From: Rhizophagus irregularis
Taxonomy: Eukaryota > Glomeromycota > Glomeromycetes > Glomerales > Glomeraceae
Direction: 5' to 3'
DNA length: 64,000 bases
NCBI RefSeq assembly: GCF_026210795.1
Contig: NC_089445.1
Span: 1,798,001-1,862,000 of the forward strand
In this document: piece after piece, positions 32,624 through 60,398 of the stretch
How the letters are laid out: each line of letters begins with the position of its first letter
How positions within the stretch are numbered: the first letter of the stretch is position 1
Translations under genes and position numbers: made by a program
The notes under the pieces: model-generated
Seen by the model: only the letters and a program-made list of their open reading frames with translations
Told to the model about the DNA's origin: nothing
Database searches by the model: none

Positions 32624-34072
32624 TTAAATTCGTTCAACTTCAAATACTTCATAATCTTCAACATTAAAAGTTCTAGGCGTAATTATTTTCCTTTCATAAT
32701 TTGTGAAAACACATGTTCTATTAAATATTCGAAGGTCACGACCAAAACCAAGTTTATCATCTTTTGAATCATATATTGCACTCCTTTCATTTCTGATTCT
32801 ACTTAATATGGTTGTTGATGAATCTATAATTGACTGAAATGAAAAAATAAAACTTCCATATGTTGAAAGATAATCATCAGATCCACTCCAATTTAACGGA
32901 TTATAACCTCCAATAATTCTTCCATCTTTGTCTTTCAATTTAATTATTACAATTGTAGCTCCTTTATTATAACACTTTTCTTTAAAAGGTTCCAAACCAA
33001 AACCATCTCTACTTCCACGTAAAAGCAAGTTGAAATCATATTGAAGATTTTTTAATGAATGAGATTTCTTGCCTAACTTATCATCAATCCAATGAGCAAT
33101 TTGATAAATATGATCCATCTTAATAATTAATGAATCTATGAGAATTCTTGGTTGTGATATTTTTGAACTTATTGGTATTTCTGGATCTATAAAATATAAA
33201 TTAATATCTTTTTCAAGTTTTTCTGGTAAAAGTGCAGACAAAGGATGCACATTATCATAATAATCATCTGGTGGAATTTGAAAAAATCTAATATGTGGAA
33301 TAAATTGTTGAATTGTTTTCTTAAAAATCTCAATTTCCTTTGAATTCCAAATAGATATATAAGAACTTACAGTTGGATTTTTTGCAATGGCCCATTTTAT
33401 TAAATTATTCCAAATCTCAATTTCATCCATCCTAAAATCATCATTTTGAATGAGTGAAAGTAAACAATCATTTTCTAATTCTAAAAATAAACTATAATTT
33501 GAATGTAAAGAATCAAAATTATTAAAAATTCTGAAAGCATTTTTAATAATATATTTTTTGACATATTCTTTAATATTTTCAATTTCTTGATGATACATAG
33601 TAAAATTATTAAGAGCATTAAAAAATGAGATCATATTTTTGTAAGATAAATCTGTGATATTTTCATGAATATATTCAATTAATTCATTAAGGTTAATTTC
33701 ATCTGCTGCAATAAGTAATTCACAAATATCTTTTGCATTTTCATCTAAATCTATGATAGTATTATAAATAAATAACAAAATAATTCTAAAGACATCAGGC
33801 CTAATATTCGGTTTTTTAAATATAAAAACATTTCCTTCTTTCTTCGCCCAATTAGGTGATAAAGCAGTATCAAAATATGCTGATCTTCCTCTTAATACAT
33901 CGGAATGTGCTTTGAAAATTTCCAAATCGTTACCTTCCCCAATTTGAATATATACATCATAATCATCATAATCATCATATAAAGGTCTTTTTGACGTTCT
34001 CAATTTTCTTCTTCCAACAATTTTAGTAGGAACATTTTCATCAAAATTATTTAATAATTTGTATAATAACAT
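32624..34072 (-). CDS. BTB-TLDc domain protein (intact copy 1)
   Basis: Single exon of 482 residues. I place the start at the ATG giving MLLYKLLNNF; an upstream in-frame ATG would add 34 residues of unlikely leader. BTB domain at about residues 38-135 (YDVYIQIGEG, FKAHSDVLRGRSAYFDTALS, NIRPDVFRIILLFIYNTIID, ELLIAADEINLNELIEYI). A BACK-like helical linker follows (LENDCLLSLIQNDDFRMDEI, FIPHIRFFQIP). TLDc at about residues 310-480 (IYQIAHWID, LLLRGSRDGFG, CYNKGATIVIIKLKDKDGRI, IIGGYNPLNW, FGRDLRIF, EDYEVFEVERI). The BTB-BACK half is typical of Cullin-3 adaptors; TLDc is linked to oxidative-stress and V-ATPase interaction in other eukaryotes. Any role here is inference. Rhizophagus has a large family of this architecture. 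Confidence 0.85.
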   Translation of the reverse strand: MLLYKLLNNFDENVPTKIVGRRKLRTSKRPLYDDYDDYDVYIQIGEGNDLEIFKAHSDVLRGRSAYFDTALSPNWAKKEGNVFIFKKPNIRPDVFRIILLFIYNTIIDLDENAKDICELLIAADEINLNELIEYIHENITDLSYKNMISFFNALNNFTMYHQEIENIKEYVKKYIIKNAFRIFNNFDSLHSNYSLFLELENDCLLSLIQNDDFRMDEIEIWNNLIKWAIAKNPTVSSYISIWNSKEIEIFKKTIQQFIPHIRFFQIPPDDYYDNVHPLSALLPEKLEKDINLYFIDPEIPISSKISQPRILIDSLIIKMDHIYQIAHWIDDKLGKKSHSLKNLQYDFNLLLRGSRDGFGLEPFKEKCYNKGATIVIIKLKDKDGRIIGGYNPLNWSGSDDYLSTYGSFIFSFQSIIDSSTTILSRIRNERSAIYDSKDDKLGFGRDLRIFNRTCVFTNYERKIITPRTFNVEDYEVFEVERI

Positions 34073-35435
34073 AATTTTTTTAGTTTTTTTTTCTTTAAAA
34101 AAAATTGGTTTTATGAAAAGAACAAAGGAAGAATATATTGTTAACGCTGTACCATTATTTATATATTTGACCATCAGTTGTGTTACAATAAGGATACTTG
34201 TTTGGTTTCGTGCTTGCCAATTTTTGCCAATTATATTATTGTGATTTTTCTTTAATGATATATTAACGATTACGTTTTAGTAAGTTTTTAACCAAACAAA
34301 ACCGATAATTATAAATATGAAAGATCTTTAAATATTAAAAAATGATTATTAGAAATTCTAATGGAAGAAAGTTTGTGAATTTATTAATAATTGATAATAT
34401 CATTGTCGGAATCCTTAAATCACAAATGTCCGTTCAAAATATTCTATAAAAGGTTAATTATATTTATTTAGAGGTCATCATTTACACATTAAAAGTTGTT
34501 ATTGTTAAGAAATAAGACGTAAATTCTGGTGAAACAACTATTTACCATTTAGGCATTTTTGATTGTCTTATATAAAAGAGGTGGACTATTTGTTGTACGG
34601 TATTAGGAAAATTGCTTTTTCGAACTTGGATGTTATATTGAGATTCTTTGGCCTTTAAAAAAAAATTTTATTATGAAAAGATGTCAAATTGTTGGTTGAT
34701 TGTACATTTGTACATCAAAACGTAACAATAACGTTGCACGAATCTGTAAATATAGTTGCCTGAACTATGAAATTATAATCTATGATGGACTTTAATAACG
34801 GTAATAAAAATTTTACTTTTGCAAATATGACTAATATTACCTATCTAATATACAAAATACTTCCCTCATGTAACACAACAACATTAGTACTCGAGACCAA
34901 TACAAATATTTATTTATTTCGCGGATTTGAAATAAAGATTTGGAAAAGTTATTTAAAATAATTTTTAAACTTAGATGTTAGATTTCAATGGAACGACGAT
35001 GTTTCTACATTGTAGATTCCACATTTGGAAGACTGATTATTTTTGATTATCATAATCATCAAAAATCATTGTTCAAGACAAAATGGTTATTAGCATATAG
35101 TCCGCTTGGTACTTGAAACATAAAGAAAAAAAGATTATATAATCCGTTATACTGTTCAATTATTTGATACCTTATACTGCATGAAAATTTAAAGAAAAAA
35201 TCGGTTGTTAAAAATCTGTTTCATTCTTTTCACATACAATACAGTAATATCAAAAACAGAAAAGGAAATAAAACTATAAAATTATACACGTTAATTATTA
35301 TATCTTTATATCAGAATAATACTCTATCTAACACATGCAATAACGCTATCAAAGTATGTAATTAATCAACTACAATATTTATAAATTATTTTAATTTAAA
35401 ATATTTCGTAATTTTTCAAATTGTAATAATTAATC
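34073..35435. other. Intergenic, upstream of BTB-TLDc copy 1
   Basis: AT-rich, with no recognisable gene or repeat. The plus-strand open frame at 34059-34244 overlaps the gene's 5' end on the other strand and is not credible. Confidence 0.45.
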
Positions 35436-39792: not shown

Positions 39793-41510
39793 TTTGTAAA
39801 GTTACTGGATAAACGTTGTCTGTCGGGGTGAAGGAACGTTTATCAATGAATAACTAAGGATTTATATATATGTGTATATAATAAAATTTGTATATTTTAT
39901 ATATTTTTATAATTATCTACAAAGTTTACAAAAATACATTTTTTAACAGAACTTTAGACGAGAAAACTTTAATAAGGTTATGGAGGTTATCATCTGATGT
40001 GGGTTCTGCGGCACAATAATTTCCTTATTGGAATAACAAAAACACAATTAATCATTTTTTTGGGGGAGTATCGGGTATCATGCATGTGTGCATGTGACAA
40101 TTTTATAATCTTATTGCCTATTACCGTTTAGCACTGACCTTTTTCGAATTTTGAGTTTGTAATCAAAAGTTTCTGACGCGAGTGTGAGCGTGATAAATAT
40201 ACTTAAGTACAACTTTTTGCGATCTACAACAATCAAAAATTGAATATTTGAAATGTTACAAAGTTTCTATGTTTAGCTTTATTACTTTTTTTTAAGAGTA
40301 AATTTATCTTAAAAAAGTTAATTGTGACACATAAATAACGAATTAAACATGCAGAGAATTGTTGAATAGTTCTTAAATTATGATTTCTTCTATCCATCAG
40401 TAATATATTATTTTTAAAAAGTAAAATATTCTAGAATTTCTCAAGAACGTAATAATTATCCTAATTGATACTTTATAAACATTTCCATTTGAGAATAGTC
40501 TTCTAGAGTTTAGACTTTAGACATCTTATTATCTTTTTTTTTTCATTTACGAAAAGTATCCTAATAATAAATCTGACACAAAAAAAGGATTAGATTATTA
40601 AATATAGCGAGTAGTCGTGGTTTATTATGGCCAGTATTACACTTTCTATTAATTGAAACTAAATAAATAATTTATTAGGCTTATTTTGTAATAATATTTA
40701 TATAATTATTGTTTGAAAGCGTTAAACGTATTGTGGACAAAAATTTCAGTAAGTTGATGATCATATCTTAGTAATATTACGTTTGAAAATTATTAGGATT
40801 ATTGAAATATAGTGAATTGGAACGTGTAAATCAGTTCAATTATCAAAAGTCACGAGAATATAATGTATCTTTCTATTCGGTATTACGTTATAATATATTT
40901 ATCATAACTTTACTAATTAAAGTTGAGTTCATTGCTATTATTCAATAATTTGTGAGGCGTGAAATTATTCCGTGTTTGATCCGTTGTGTAAATCGGAGTA
41001 AAATTTGTTAATATGGTTGGAAAGATATCTACTAAATAAGTTCAGATGTCTTTTTATTGACGATTACGCAATAAATTATATTTATTTAATATTACCAAAT
41101 ATAAAAATAATTTTAAGTGGTTGGAGAATATGTAATCATTTACTTGTGTAATAAAAAATCATGACATTGTTTTTAATAGGATGTACATACTGATTACATT
41201 AAGAATTAATCATACATACTTTATATCCTCTCTGTAGCAATAGAACATACGTTGAAATACGCGTTTAATTAACTAATTAAAATTGTGATATAATACAATA
41301 TCTGCTTGTAAGTATTGTGATCAAAGACGGGGCAAATTAATTATATGATTTACATGTACTATATATCTGAGCTTCTGAGCTTATATTGATTTATTTAATC
41401 GGATTGTAAGTACATGAGTCATTCCAAATAAGTCATGAGTCATTCCGATTTGATTTGAATTTTTTGGTATTTAGATAACAAAAAACATATAAAAGACCCT
41501 ACTTTCTTTT
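39793..41510. other. 5' flank of KH copy 1 and non-coding DNA
   Basis: The first 350 bp or so resemble the region upstream of the KH paralogue (shared 'ttgtaaagttactggataaa', 'aatttccttattggaa' and 'ctgacgcga/aatg' patterns), showing that the duplication included 5' DNA. The rest has no recognisable feature. Confidence 0.5.
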
Positions 41511-41514
41511 TATA

Positions 41515-42068
41515 TTATTCTCTTTTTTTTAGTCTTTTTTTTATTTTAGGACTTCTCTTTTTTTTCGGTCTTTCTTTTTAGGACTTCTCTTTTTTTTGTC
41601 TTTCTTTTTAGGTTTTTTTCTTTTTTCGGTCTTTCCTCTTTTTTTTTGGTCTTTCTTTTTAAGACTTCTCTCTCTTTTTTTCGGTCATGCTTTTTAGGTC
41701 TTCTCTCTCTTTTTTTTCGGTCACACTTTTTTTCGGTCTTTCTTTTTAGGATTCTCTTTTTTTTATCTTTCTTTTTTTAGGTCTTCTCTTCCTTTCGGTC
41801 TTTCTTTTTAGGACTTCTTTTGTTTTTCGGTCTTTCTTTTAAGACTGTTTTTACCTTTTTTTTATACTGTAGGTTTTCTCCTTTTTTCGGTCTTTCCTCT
41901 TTTTTTTTTGATCTTCTTTTCAAGATTTTTCAGTCTTTATTTTAGGTTTTCTCCTTTTCTTTGGTCTTTCTTCAAGGATTCTCTTTTTTTTTCAATCTTT
42001 CTTTTTTTAGATCATCTCTTCCTTTCGGTCTTCTCATACCATCTGCTTTTTTTTTGGATCTTCTTTTT
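41515..42068. repeat. Polypyrimidine tandem array ('ggtctttctttttaggacttc')
   Basis: About 15-20 imperfect copies of a 25-35 bp unit, (t)cggtctttctttttagga followed by cttctcttttttt, give an almost pure C/T strand over 550 bp. The open frame at 41908-42132 is a Phe/Leu/Ser reading of it and not a gene. Confidence 0.85.
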
Positions 42069-42270
42069 TTTAGTGGAGATTAAGGGCTTGAAATGCATTT
42101 GTAAGATCACTAAGCATCATATTTCATGTTGATGAATATCCTTTGAAATATTTCAGTTATATCGGGAAAAATTTTTGCGTGAAATCTCATCCAGGCTTGA
42201 ATAACAAAATGAATTGTTTGCAACTTTCTTTTTTTCAAGATTTTTCAGAACTAATATTTTTTTTAATTAG

Positions 42271-42626
42271 GAGCGGTATAGTTCTATGCGTGAATGAATA
42301 AGGCCAAAGGTAAGTTTATTGGGTACTTTAAGTTGGAGCAGCATGATGCTATGCATGGGCGGGAGCATAGCGTGCTTACTTTTGTAAGCCTGTGAGTACC
42401 AGCTTTGCTGCAGTCTCACAGTAGGGCTGGTTGGGAATATTTTTGGAGCGGTATAGTACTATGCGAGGGTTGGAGCATAGACGCTTACCTTTAGTAAGCT
42501 CGTAGGTACCAGTTTCTGCTGCAGTCCTACGATAGGACCGGTTGGTTGTGGTACGGCATGGTGCTATGCGTAATTTTAATTGGGAGGAGCATAGTGCGCT
42601 TCTTCGGAAGTCCCTTGTGGCAGGGC
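42271..42626 (+). repeat. Hairpin-rich repeat set, possible structured RNA or fold-back modules
   Basis: A partial copy (42271) and three further copies (about 42335, 42446, 42550) of a roughly 110-bp, relatively G+C-rich unit. Copies 1 and 2 each form the same three hairpins: P1 (c)tatgc/gcata(g) (42348-42371; 42459-42480), P2 GCTTAC/GTAAGC (42374-42389; 42483-42499) and P3, CTGTGAG/CTCACAG in copy 1 (42390-42421) and TCGTAGG/CCTACGA in copy 2 (42500-42532), around a shared loop 'taccag...tgctgcagt'. Four of the seven P3 pairs differ by compensatory changes. Copy 3 keeps P1 but has a UUCG-capped stem (42599-42610) and a CCCT/AGGG stem. No frame is conserved. It could be an RNA or a DNA hairpin element. 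Confidence 0.6.
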
Positions 42627-43083
42627 CGTAAGTAATTAAGATTTCAAAATATGGTAAATCAAAAAATTTGCAAAATTAATTATTTTTGATATAATGTGAC
42701 TATTACTATTATTTCTATCAAGGAACAATATTTTTTATTTTACTTTATTAATTTGGATAAAATGAAATGTTAAATGAAACGTATATTATATTTTTCTTGT
42801 CCAGTTTATTTATTGTGCGCGTTAGTAAGAAACACCAATAATCTTTTCTTAGAATATATTGTTAATTTATATATTTTACTGAAAATACTTTTTATTGTAA
42901 TAATAAGTAATTTTATTTACGTAAAAAAAACAATACATATATAAAAAAAGAAAGTGATATACAAAACTAATTACAGACTACATAGGTATTTTTTCTAAGT
43001 ACATAACTAAATATTTACTTAAACTCGTAATTTTTTTTATATTTTACTTTGTCGTAGTCTATATGAGAGTTGATTTATTTGTG
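42627..43083. other. Non-coding 3' flank of KH copy 2
   Basis: AT-rich. No second exon equivalent to that of KH copy 1 can be recognised here. Confidence 0.4.
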
Positions 43084-43464
43084 TTATTTCCGTTCAGAGG
43101 CTATTCTTTCTCTTTTCAAATTATTTTCTTTCCAACGTTTTGATTTTTCGTAATGATTTTCTTTATGATTGTTATTGTTAACTTTCTTTTTTACAGTATT
43201 TTTTTGACGATTTTTCATCTCAAGATCGATTGTTTTCATTAACTTTTTTAATTTATCACTTGCTTCTTTAATTCTATCTTTACATGATAGAAGAGTAATT
43301 TTTTCATTAATTTTAATTTCAATATGTGGTGGTTTTGCTTCGGTGATTACATGAATATGTGTACCAGTTTCCTCTTCAATGGGTTTTAGGTTACATCCTC
43401 CAGGACCAATCAATCTTCCAAAGGAAATAATTTTAGGGATTTTAATTTTGGTTGGTGATTGCAT
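43084..43464 (-). CDS. KH-domain protein, copy 2 (possibly truncated)
   Basis: Single open frame of 126 residues, paralogous to the gene at 39251-39792. It has the same start (MQSPTKIKIPK), GRLIGPGGCNLKP with the GxxG loop as G20-P-G-G23, EEETGTHIHVITEAKPPHIE, and the helix DRIKEASDKLKKLMK, followed by a basic tail ending ERIASERK. In copy 1 the equivalent SERE is followed by about 30 more residues and a spliced exon. Here the frame stops at once and no comparable 3' exon is seen, so the C-terminus looks truncated. The KH core is intact and may still bind RNA. Confidence 0.6.
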   Translation of the reverse strand: MQSPTKIKIPKIISFGRLIGPGGCNLKPIEEETGTHIHVITEAKPPHIEIKINEKITLLSCKDRIKEASDKLKKLMKTIDLEMKNRQKNTVKKKVNNNNHKENHYEKSKRWKENNLKRERIASERK

Positions 43465-58997: not shown

Positions 58998-60398
58998 TCA
59001 CGTATTTTTCTTTACAATTTGAAATACTTCGTAATCTTCAATTTCGAAACTATCATTTTTAATAATTCTTTTTTCGTATTCTTTAAGATCACAAACTTTA
59101 TCAAATATTCGAAGGTCACCATCACCAAAACCATGTTTATCATAAGCAGAATCATATATTGCATTTTTTCCGTTCTTAACTCTACTTAGAACAGTTGATG
59201 ATAAATTTAGAGTAGATTGAAATGAGAAAATAAAACTATCATTCGTTGAAAGATATTTACTAGCACCCCTCCAACTTAAAGGATTATAACCTCCAATGAT
59301 TTTATCATCATCTTTCAATTTAATTATTATAAGAGTAGCTCTTTTATTATAACATCTTTTTCCAAAAGTATCAATACCAAAACCATCTCTACTTCCACGT
59401 AAAAGTAATTTAAATTCATATGGAACTAATTTTAAAGAAACTTCACCTTGATTTTTATCAATCCAATGAACAATTTGATAAATATGATCCATATCAATAA
59501 TTACTGATTCTACATTAACTTTTCTTGAAGGTAATACTTTTGTATTTAATGAACTTCCTGGTACAAGATAATGTAAAATAAGTTCTTCATTAAGTTCTTT
59601 TGGTAAAAGTGCTGATAAAGGACGTATTTTATAATAATAATCTTCAGAAGAAATTTGAAAAAATCTAATATGTGGAATAAATTGTTGAATTGTTAACTTA
59701 ATAAAATCAATTTCTTTAGAATTCCAAAGTGTTGTATCATTACTAACATTTGGATTTTTTGTTATAGCCCATTTTAATAAATTATCCCAAATTTCAATTT
59801 CATCCATTTTAAAATTATCACTTTGAATAAGTGAAAGTAAAGCATCATCTTCTAATTCTGAAAATAAATTAAAATTATTCAAAAATTTATCAGGATTATT
59901 ACTAATAAGATCTTCAAAATGTTCATAAAGAATATTAAAAACTCCTTGATAACGTGAAAGTGTATTATATAATTTAATTTCATTTCTCTTAAACCATTCT
60001 TGATCTAATGTAATAATATGATTTTGAATATAATCAACTAATTCATCAAGATTAATTTCATCCGCTGCAATAAGTAATTCAATAAGATTATTTTCTACAA
60101 TTACAGATTTTATATTTATAGTTCCAGTATAAATATATTTTAAAATAATCCTAAAAATATTAGGTTTAATATTCGGTTTTTTAAATGTAAAAACATTTCC
60201 TTCTTTTTTCGCCCAATTTGATGATAATGCGGAATCAAAATATGATGATCTAATTTTTAATATATTAGAATGTGCTTTAAAATATTCTATATCAAATTCT
60301 TCTCCAACTTGAATAATTACATCATAATCATTTGTATCATTATAAAGTCGACTCAAGTCTCTTAATAATGAATTTACTAAAGTTTCAGAAGACATCAT
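58998..60398 (-). CDS. BTB-TLDc domain protein (intact copy 2)
   Basis: Single exon, 466 residues from MMSSETLVNSLLRDLSRL. BTB at about residues 22-125 (YDVIIQVGEE, FKAHSNILKIRSSYFDSALS, NIFRIILKYIYTGTINI, ELLIAADEINLDELVDYI). BACK-like linker at about 130-260 (LEDDALLSLIQSDNFKMDEI, WDNLLKWAITKNP, IPHIRFFQIS). TLDc at about 300-462 (IYQIVHWID, LLLRGSRDGFGIDTF, CYNKRATLIIIKLKDDDKI, IGGYNPLSW, GFGDGDLRIF, IEDYEVFQIV). It shares the lineage-typical NWAKKEGNVF block with the copy at 32624-34072. The family layout suggests a Cullin-3 adaptor-like protein, which is inference. The dead copy at 35440-36940 is closer to this gene than to copy 1. Confidence 0.87.
   Translation of the reverse strand: MMSSETLVNSLLRDLSRLYNDTNDYDVIIQVGEEFDIEYFKAHSNILKIRSSYFDSALSSNWAKKEGNVFTFKKPNIKPNIFRIILKYIYTGTINIKSVIVENNLIELLIAADEINLDELVDYIQNHIITLDQEWFKRNEIKLYNTLSRYQGVFNILYEHFEDLISNNPDKFLNNFNLFSELEDDALLSLIQSDNFKMDEIEIWDNLLKWAITKNPNVSNDTTLWNSKEIDFIKLTIQQFIPHIRFFQISSEDYYYKIRPLSALLPKELNEELILHYLVPGSSLNTKVLPSRKVNVESVIIDMDHIYQIVHWIDKNQGEVSLKLVPYEFKLLLRGSRDGFGIDTFGKRCYNKRATLIIIKLKDDDKIIGGYNPLSWRGASKYLSTNDSFIFSFQSTLNLSSTVLSRVKNGKNAIYDSAYDKHGFGDGDLRIFDKVCDLKEYEKRIIKNDSFEIEDYEVFQIVKKNT

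What the first reader, a model, noticed from the sequence alone, without database searches (positions are those of the whole stretch)
42271..42626. Repeated three-hairpin module with compensatory base-pair changes
Seen: two adjacent copies (about 111 bp apart) fold into the same P1-P2-P3 hairpins. P3 is CTGTGAG/CTCACAG in one and TCGTAGG/CCTACGA in the other, so four of seven pairs change on both sides while the loop sequence (taccag...tgctgcagt) stays. A small stem before P1 also co-varies (GCA/TGC in copies 1 and 3, GTA/TAC in copy 2). A third copy swaps P2 for a UUCG-capped stem. Covariation with a conserved loop argues for selection on structure. Inference: a family of structured RNAs, or a hairpin-type mobile element such as the double-hairpin elements known in fungal mitochondrial DNA (it could even be a nuclear mitochondrial insert).
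Basis: partly seen in the sequence, partly recalled or inferred. Interest (0 to 1): 0.78.

Follow-up and report, generated by a model that had tools for sequence, protein, structure and literature searches.

The report
Repeated cloverleaf RNA in mycorrhizal fungus
The repeated hairpins are cloverleaf-shaped building blocks of an apparently undescribed family of about fifty non-coding RNA genes in the root-symbiotic fungus Rhizophagus irregularis, whose folded shape has been kept by natural selection although its task is unknown.

Summary
The genome is that of Rhizophagus irregularis (assembly figures match the published DAOM197198 assembly). Window 42335-42631 holds three domains of ~80-97 nt, A-B-C. 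A and B fold into the same four-way-junction cloverleaf; C is a shortened relative that is the last domain in 47 of 51 loci. A covariance model (106 A and B sequences) finds 203 domains in 51 of 52 stretches, on 19 of 32 chromosomes. Stem pairs hold in 99.4% of cells, with at least 24 Watson-Crick-to-Watson-Crick double changes on a tree (slid controls 5-9). G-U changes outnumber A-C changes 85 to 7, so the selected molecule is RNA read from the + strand. In 15 loci further domains are set apart by 47 spacers; all begin like introns (GT after A[A/G]G) and 46 keep an AG acceptor. All 32 internal exons have stops in every frame. Elements in most paralogue pairs are far more alike than their flanks. 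Rfam 15 gave no match above its cut-offs. A mitochondrial double-hairpin element or transposon is not supported. Best reading: a new multi-copy, spliced, structured non-coding RNA family, perhaps a multivalent protein-binding scaffold; transcription, splicing and function are inferred, not shown.

The parts
42270..42309 (+). Decayed partial domain (B/C-like 5' half, ends GGCCAAAG); remnants of it, by eye, in the 12 loci of the subfamily to which the window copy belongs
   Evidence: Sequence and the 12 upstream regions
42310..42315 (+). GTAAGT, 5'-splice-site-like hexamer; present in 12 of 12 loci of this subfamily; no convincing acceptor before domain A, role unclear
42321..42326 (+). GGGTAC, leader motif shared by most loci; tentative 5' strand of a helix closing the whole A-B-C element in other loci (the 3' partner RTACT is not recognisable in the window copy)
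42335..42430 (+). Domain A: four-way-junction cloverleaf (P0, P1, P2, P3)
   Evidence: cmsearch 108.0 bits, but this sequence is in the model's training set; its own minimum-energy fold is the cloverleaf; pair counts
42431..42444 (+). U-rich linker between A and B (TTGGGAATATTTTT)
42445..42541 (+). Domain B: same cloverleaf with different stems
   Evidence: cmsearch 105.0 bits, also in the training set; its own minimum-energy fold is the cloverleaf
42550..42631 (+). Domain C: terminal short cloverleaf (TACGGC/GCCGTA closing stem, 9-bp P1, CTTC-TTCG-GAAG P2, CCCT/AGGG P3)
   Evidence: cmsearch 32.3 bits, not in the training set; pair counts on 36 C sequences

Best explanation
A multi-copy family of nuclear, probably RNA polymerase II-type, spliced non-coding RNA genes of Rhizophagus irregularis. 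The mature RNA is a string of cloverleaf domains: A-B-C in the commonest form (31 of 51 loci parsed), longer forms such as A-B-A-B-A-C or A-B-A-A-A-A-A-A-A-A-C in 14 loci, in which each added A or A-B unit lies in its own exon and C is the last domain. Shown here: the domains, their conserved secondary structure on the + strand, copy numbers, the exon/intron-like layout, lack of an open sense frame, and conservation far above the flanks in most paralogue pairs. Inferred: transcription, splicing and mechanism. Most likely mechanism: each cloverleaf with its conserved unpaired residues (GGGNNGG loop of P1, AU and UAGG junctions, bulge and CAG/CTG tip of P3) is a docking site for an RNA-binding protein; the array gives multivalency, and the introns let domain exons be added or lost by unequal exchange without harming neighbouring domains. 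My rough odds: selected structured RNA 0.95; own spliced gene 0.8; multivalent protein scaffold 0.35.
For: Structure: 99.4% of 3034 cells paired, 13 of 29 pairs with both-side changes, slid controls 19.8-42.8%; RNAalifold finds essentially the same fold unprompted; at least 24 Watson-Crick-to-Watson-Crick changes at 15 of 30 pairs on a tree, against 5-9 for slid partners, the A/B split included; more than one Watson-Crick type at 5 pairs within A and 7 within B, one of the latter due to a single hybrid row. Strand: 206 G-U cells against 8 A-C cells, 85 against 7 gains and losses by parsimony. Constraint: in 15 of 17 paralogue pairs the element is 86.8-98.6% identical and the 400-bp flanks 43.7-86.5%. 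Decayed and gapped copies pair in 93.0% of 487 cells. Copy number: 203 hits in 51 of 52 sources, the 106 training sequences among them; 127 exact P1-motif hits in the genome, 0 for the reversed control. Introns: 47 of 47 gaps over 40 nt between neighbouring domains, in 15 loci, begin GT after A[AG]G (38 GTAAGT, 3 GTGAGT); 46 of 47 end AG just before the next leader. Non-coding: stops in all three frames in 32 of 32 internal exons. Upstream: pyrimidine-rich tract (mean 76% against 49% distal) in one subfamily, 12 of 20 loci above 75%.
Against: No RNA data: neither transcription nor splicing was observed. Single-sequence folding is only mildly unusual on the + strand and more unusual on the - strand. 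The window copy and its 11 close relatives lack the promoter-like upstream sequence of other loci, so they may be expressed differently or not at all. A loose TATA-like pattern matched only 13 of 28 upstream regions. In two paralogue pairs (L045/L047, L025/L026) at least one flank is as alike as the element or nearly so, and in L041/L042 the upstream flank (86.5%) about equals the element (87.6%). Other species could not be searched, so depth of conservation is unknown; gene conversion among copies could add to the high identity. Nothing here names a binding partner.
Confidence: 0.65

Rival explanations
1. A non-autonomous mobile element (SINE-, MITE- or hairpin-type, or the mitochondrial double-hairpin kind) whose structure serves its own spread.
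For: About 50 dispersed loci, some decayed or truncated; one orphan C fragment (L057).
Against: No excess of target-site duplications: the longest string shared by the two flanks averages 7.3 nt against 7.1 for mismatched flanks, 2 of 40 loci above the control's 95th percentile, though the exact borders of the element are uncertain. Several subfamilies share diverged flanks well beyond the element. Of 28 genome matches to the neighbouring KH gene (itself included), 7 lie within 100 kb of loci of the window's subfamily, where I reckon about 0.5 by chance (positions, counted by hand), as expected of segmental duplication. Intron-like spacers with kept splice signals are not expected of a retroposed RNA. 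Intact domains are paired at 99.4%.
Confidence: 0.12
2. A precursor of small RNAs (miRNA-like or siRNA), the hairpins being Dicer substrates.
For: R. irregularis is named among fungi with a higher number of confirmed hairpin small-RNA loci (PMC9757828, passages only).
Against: The longest stem, P3, has about 13 pairs broken by an unpaired U and a two-base bulge, short for a ~24-nt duplex; unpaired columns are nearly as conserved as paired ones (2.7 against 2.2 changes per column).
Confidence: 0.08
3. A structured intronic or untranslated-region element of protein-coding hosts (cis-regulatory RNA) rather than a gene of its own.
For: In 12 of 12 loci of the window's subfamily a GTAAGT lies just upstream of domain A with no clear acceptor before it, so those copies could lie inside an intron.
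Against: No shared protein-coding neighbour was evident by eye among stop-to-stop stretches of 90 codons or more within about 2.5 kb of 40 loci; other subfamilies share a promoter-like upstream region and have their own exon series.
Confidence: 0.12
4. A protein-coding repeat family (for example SP7-like tandem-repeat effectors), read in a frame that was missed.
For: Antisense stretches of 90 codons or more without a stop reach into the element in many loci, up to 185 codons; SP7-like effectors of this fungus have tandem repeats (PMC11333574, passages).
Against: All 32 internal sense exons have stops in every frame and their lengths are not held to one phase. On the antisense strand only 3 of 25 elements looked at keep a frame free of stops, and loop lengths vary by 1 nt between copies.
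Confidence: 0.03

Closest known systems
Tandem-repeat structured lncRNAs (Xist A-repeat, hsr-omega and similar; recalled, no call)
   Same: Several copies of a repeated module in one long RNA; function thought to depend on module number.
   Different: Here each module is a covarying four-way junction, added as a separate exon, in a ~50-locus gene family of a fungus.
U1 snRNA
   Same: A four-way-junction cloverleaf (recalled), followed in single copies here by an AAUUUUUUGG-like stretch.
   Different: This genome has three ordinary U1 genes elsewhere; no U1 hit in the window or the element; the Sm-like stretch is shortened in many arrays (GAACTTGG).
Mitochondrial double-hairpin elements (Allomyces; named in PMC7218506, passages)
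   Same: Small hairpin-rich repeats in a fungus.
   Different: Nuclear, ~300 nt or longer, three to eleven domains in loci that end in C apart from one A-C locus, intron-like spacers, no sign of recent mobility.
SP7-like effector genes of R. irregularis (PMC11333574, passages)
   Same: Same fungus, dispersed family, variable number of repeats, a differing terminal repeat.
   Different: Those are proteins; these exons are closed in all sense frames and conserve RNA pairing.
Aphid Ya lncRNA family (recalled, no call)
   Same: A lineage-specific multi-copy lncRNA family of a plant-associated organism.
   Different: No evidence here of export to plants; Ya RNAs are not known to me as cloverleaf arrays.

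Membership tests
Any Rfam 15 family | Covariance-model score at or above the curated cut-off | tested here: not met
   Window: 0 hits; element alone at E<=10: one hit, mir-512, 17.6 bits against a cut-off of 94; four of the other 51 stretches at E<=1: one sub-threshold rli61 hit outside the element
tRNA / tmRNA | ARAGORN detection | tested here: not met
   0 genes in the window
U1 snRNA | Match to RF00003 | tested here: not met
   Three U1 matches, on C9, C17 and C3, none at an element locus
Protein-coding repeat gene | Conserved open sense frame across exons | tested here: not met
   32 of 32 internal exons have stops in every sense frame
Transposon / SINE | Target-site duplications | tested here: not met
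   Flank-to-flank shared strings no longer than in mismatched controls, 40 loci; borders uncertain
Mitochondrial double-hairpin element or NUMT | Copies in mitochondrial DNA | not testable with these tools
   The fungus's mitochondrial genome was not available to search
Structured ncRNA family | Compensatory changes above controls, on one strand | tested here: met
Spliced Pol II ncRNA gene | GT-AG introns between exons | tested here: met
   Sequence signals only: 47 of 47 donors, 46 of 47 acceptors
Spliced Pol II ncRNA gene | Observed spliced transcript | not testable with these tools
   No reads available

The most novel reading that the evidence does not exclude
A previously undescribed RNA family in which cloverleaf domains are added exon by exon, so that splicing assembles poly-cloverleaf RNAs with a fixed capping domain. 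It would be a large covariation-supported RNA family of arbuscular mycorrhizal fungi with its own biochemical role, for instance scaffold of a nuclear body in the coenocyte or an RNA exported to the host plant.
Probability: 0.5. Interest if true: 0.88.

Novelty: new variant of a known kind. Interest (0 to 1): 0.74.

Why it matters
Large structured RNAs with strong covariation are uncommon finds in fungi, and I know of none that grows by adding one folded domain per exon (my knowledge, not a search result). If transcribed, this family gives the arbuscular mycorrhizal fungi, which are hard to transform, a new class of candidate regulatory or exported RNA whose protein partner, splicing and copy-number variation between strains can be tested directly.

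Tried and rejected
Sm-site / U1-like reading of the A-B linker: dropped because many arrays lose it and U1 genes are elsewhere. Viral, bacterial and plasmid collections: exact P1 and P3 patterns gave 0 in viral contigs, the P1 pattern 0 in genome contigs, and blastn 0 in plasmids; these are not fungal collections, so this says little. A 3'-tail hairpin after C: no consensus fold over 37 aligned tails. A whole-element closing helix GGGTAY/RTACT: 4-6 of 6 pairs in the 26 of 40 loci where my patterns found both sides; the patterns themselves build in part of the pairing, 6 of 26 have a C-A break at one pair, and the window copy is not among them; kept as tentative only. SSU rRNA search to confirm the species failed twice. 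Mutual-information scan: within A the two top pairs are stem pairs (79-89, 19-40); within B subfamily signal dominated; no tertiary contact claimed.

Rows dropped. Of 74 A and 53 B instances, nine with large indels, truncation or hybrid make-up were left out by hand and identical sequences merged, leaving 65 + 41. The four dropped A and two of the five dropped B instances were counted apart with seven further loci, most of them decayed (A2, 19 rows, two of them also in A1); the two L030 B instances were not counted; the dropped L041 hybrid has a twin of the same sequence in A1. Two of 38 distinct C rows were dropped.

Superseded counts of mine. One search found 42 spacers, but its pattern demanded GT[AT]A and T[TA]AG, so it could not test them and it missed L044 (GTGAGT); replace it by taking every gap over 40 nt between neighbouring domains. 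In one search, 7 of 30 'exons' were mis-cut inside domain B or were not internal exons; one search replaces it for exons, and only its six-frame count of whole elements is used here. One search was a failed version.

Literature: eight library searches on this fungus, its RNAs or structured RNA families and one on double-hairpin elements showed no listing that describes this family; only listings and, for five papers, passages were read.

Full report
Where it is. The window is C17:1798001-1862000 of a 146.7-Mb, 32-contig genome. Contig C13 is 5,085,394 bases long; the published R. irregularis DAOM197198 assembly has 32 chromosome-scale scaffolds and a scaffold N50 of 5,085,394 with L50 13 (PMC10234402, passages read). 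The window carries two BTB-TLD genes, a CCDC47 exon and a KH-domain gene. I take the species as settled, although the rRNA check failed.

What is there. Domain A is 42335-42430, B 42445-42541 and C 42550-42631. A decayed half-domain lies at 42270-42309. A and B fold into the same cloverleaf: P0 (4 bp) closes a four-way junction with P1 (up to 9 bp), P2 (6 bp) and P3 (7 bp, then an extension with a bulge and a CAG/CTG tip). The minimum-energy folds of A and B taken alone are this structure; that of C alone is not its consensus fold. By comparison of copies C has the closing stem, a 9-bp P1, a 4-bp P2 and a 4-bp P3.

How many. A DNA search gave 75 matches, a P1 motif 127 exact matches against 0 for its reversed control (not all places listed), and further queries added loci. 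I fetched 39 stretches of 5-6 kb and 12 short ones. A covariance model from 106 A and B domains finds 203 domains in 51 of the 52 sources searched (window plus 51 stretches, E<=0.01), the training sequences included; the one without a hit, L057, is an orphan C fragment. In the 64-kb window it finds only the three domains. The loci lie on 19 of 32 contigs (places). Profile parsing of those 51 loci gives 31 A-B-C, 14 arrays such as A-B-A-B-A-C, one A-B-C-A-B-C, and five shorter remnants; C is last in 47 of 51; the longest, L055, has 11 domains. In L041 two domains are C in the 5' half and B in the 3' half, so C and B are homologous. These are lower bounds: the genome search scores only the best candidates.

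Is the structure selected? On 106 distinct domains 99.4% of 3034 cells form standard pairs; 13 of 29 pairs change on both sides; sliding the partners by 1-3 columns gives 19.8-42.8%. RNAalifold finds essentially the same junction without being told (it leaves out 14-45 and adds three pairs in P3). On a FastTree phylogeny of the same alignment at least 24 Watson-Crick-to-Watson-Crick changes are needed at 15 of 30 pairs; slid partners give 5-9. Part of these is the A/B split, but 5 pairs within A and 7 within B hold more than one Watson-Crick type (one of the B cases is the hybrid row). For C, 731 Watson-Crick and 75 G-U cells against 20 unpaired (36 rows; slid controls 31.6-47.1% paired). A set of 19 mostly decayed or gapped copies pairs in 93.0% of cells, as expected when selection is relaxed. 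Results the other way: single-sequence folding energies are unremarkable on the + strand (z -1.88) and stronger on the - strand (z -4.64), so the case rests on comparison of copies, not on energy.

Which strand. In the named pairs there are 206 G-U cells and 8 A-C cells, 85 against 7 gains and losses by parsimony. A G-U pair on one strand is an A-C mismatch on the other, so the + strand RNA is the molecule under selection.

Constraint against flanks. Among 17 chosen paralogue pairs the element is 86.8-99.7% identical. The 400-bp upstream flank is 51.2-86.5% in 16 pairs and 96.6% in L045/L047; the downstream flank is 43.7-84.6% in 15 pairs, 95.4% in L025/L026 and 98.1% in L045/L047, which look like recent duplications. 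Flank values come from forced end-to-end alignments of AT-rich DNA, so I take the lowest ones to mean no homology. In L041/L042 element and upstream flank are about equally alike; the two array pairs L037/L038 and L041/L042 also differ in domain order, which lowers their element identity. Gene conversion could contribute, but it would not make paired sites change together.

Gene structure. Taking every gap over 40 nt between neighbouring domains gives 47 gaps in 15 loci (14 arrays and L030). All 47 begin with GT directly after an exon end A[AG]G: 38 GTAAGT, 3 GTGAGT, 3 GTAATT, 3 others. In 46 an AG lies just before the next leader (TTAG in 44); in the 47th, L038, a deletion appears to have removed it and cut into C. 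The 45 measured are 56-85 nt long; T makes up 68%; 35 of 47 hold CTTCAT. Interiors vary in length while ends are kept, which is how introns evolve. All 32 internal exons have stops in all three frames. One subfamily (20 loci) has a pyrimidine-rich tract at -220 to -80 (76% against 49% distal; 12 of 20 above 75%), and several of its loci share a sequence around TTTATTATAC. The window copy belongs to another subfamily of 12 loci with T-rich upstream stretches and a GTAAGT just before domain A in 12 of 12; its promoter, if any, is not apparent.

How it spread. Flanks of several subfamilies align for hundreds of bases. Of 28 genome matches to the neighbouring KH gene, itself included, 7 lie within 100 kb of loci of the window's subfamily (counted by hand). 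No excess of target-site duplications is seen. This fits segmental and tandem duplication better than transposition.

What it does. Among the most conserved unpaired positions of A and B are the GG before P0, the AU between P0 and P1, GGGNNGG in the P1 loop and UAGG after P3. With the stems this looks like a protein-binding surface repeated along a chain, and I propose a multivalent scaffold. That step is inference and rests on analogy with repeat-built lncRNAs (recalled).

Known or new. Rfam 15 gave nothing above its cut-offs for the window, the element and four other loci. ARAGORN finds no tRNA in the window, and U1 has three matches elsewhere in this genome. My literature searches listed nothing that describes it, but the library lacks many subscription papers and I read passages only, of PMC8647823, PMC10234402, PMC11333574, PMC9757828 and PMC7218506.

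Noticed in passing
window 41500-42075: T-rich degenerate repeats (CTTTCTTTTTAGGACTTCTCTTTTTTTCGGT and the like) just upstream of the element; similar T-rich stretches lie upstream of other loci of the same subfamily.
   Followed up: partly
window 43084-43464 (-): KH-domain ORF (KH_1, E 3.6e-9) with a basic tail; 28 matches in the genome, itself included, 9 of them on C23.
   Followed up: partly
window 32624-34174 (-) and 58998-60398 (-): Two BTB-TLD protein genes.
   Followed up: no
L009, L011, L028 and other loci, antisense strand: Antisense stretches of 90-185 codons without a stop reach into the element in many loci; only 3 of 25 elements are free of stops in one antisense frame throughout.
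   Followed up: partly
L051, about 270-460: A decayed copy interrupted by a sequence containing repeated CCGTGAATGTATCATTTTCA(C/T)GGAATTT motifs.
   Followed up: no
L037 and L040-L047, last A domain of each array: The terminal A domain carries TGTAG instead of the usual TGCAG in P3 in 9 of the 11 arrays shown, so domain copies keep a position-specific identity despite tandem duplication.
   Followed up: no
L060, L061, L062: Three U1 snRNA matches on C9, C17 and C3, scoring 87-101.5 bits.
   Followed up: no
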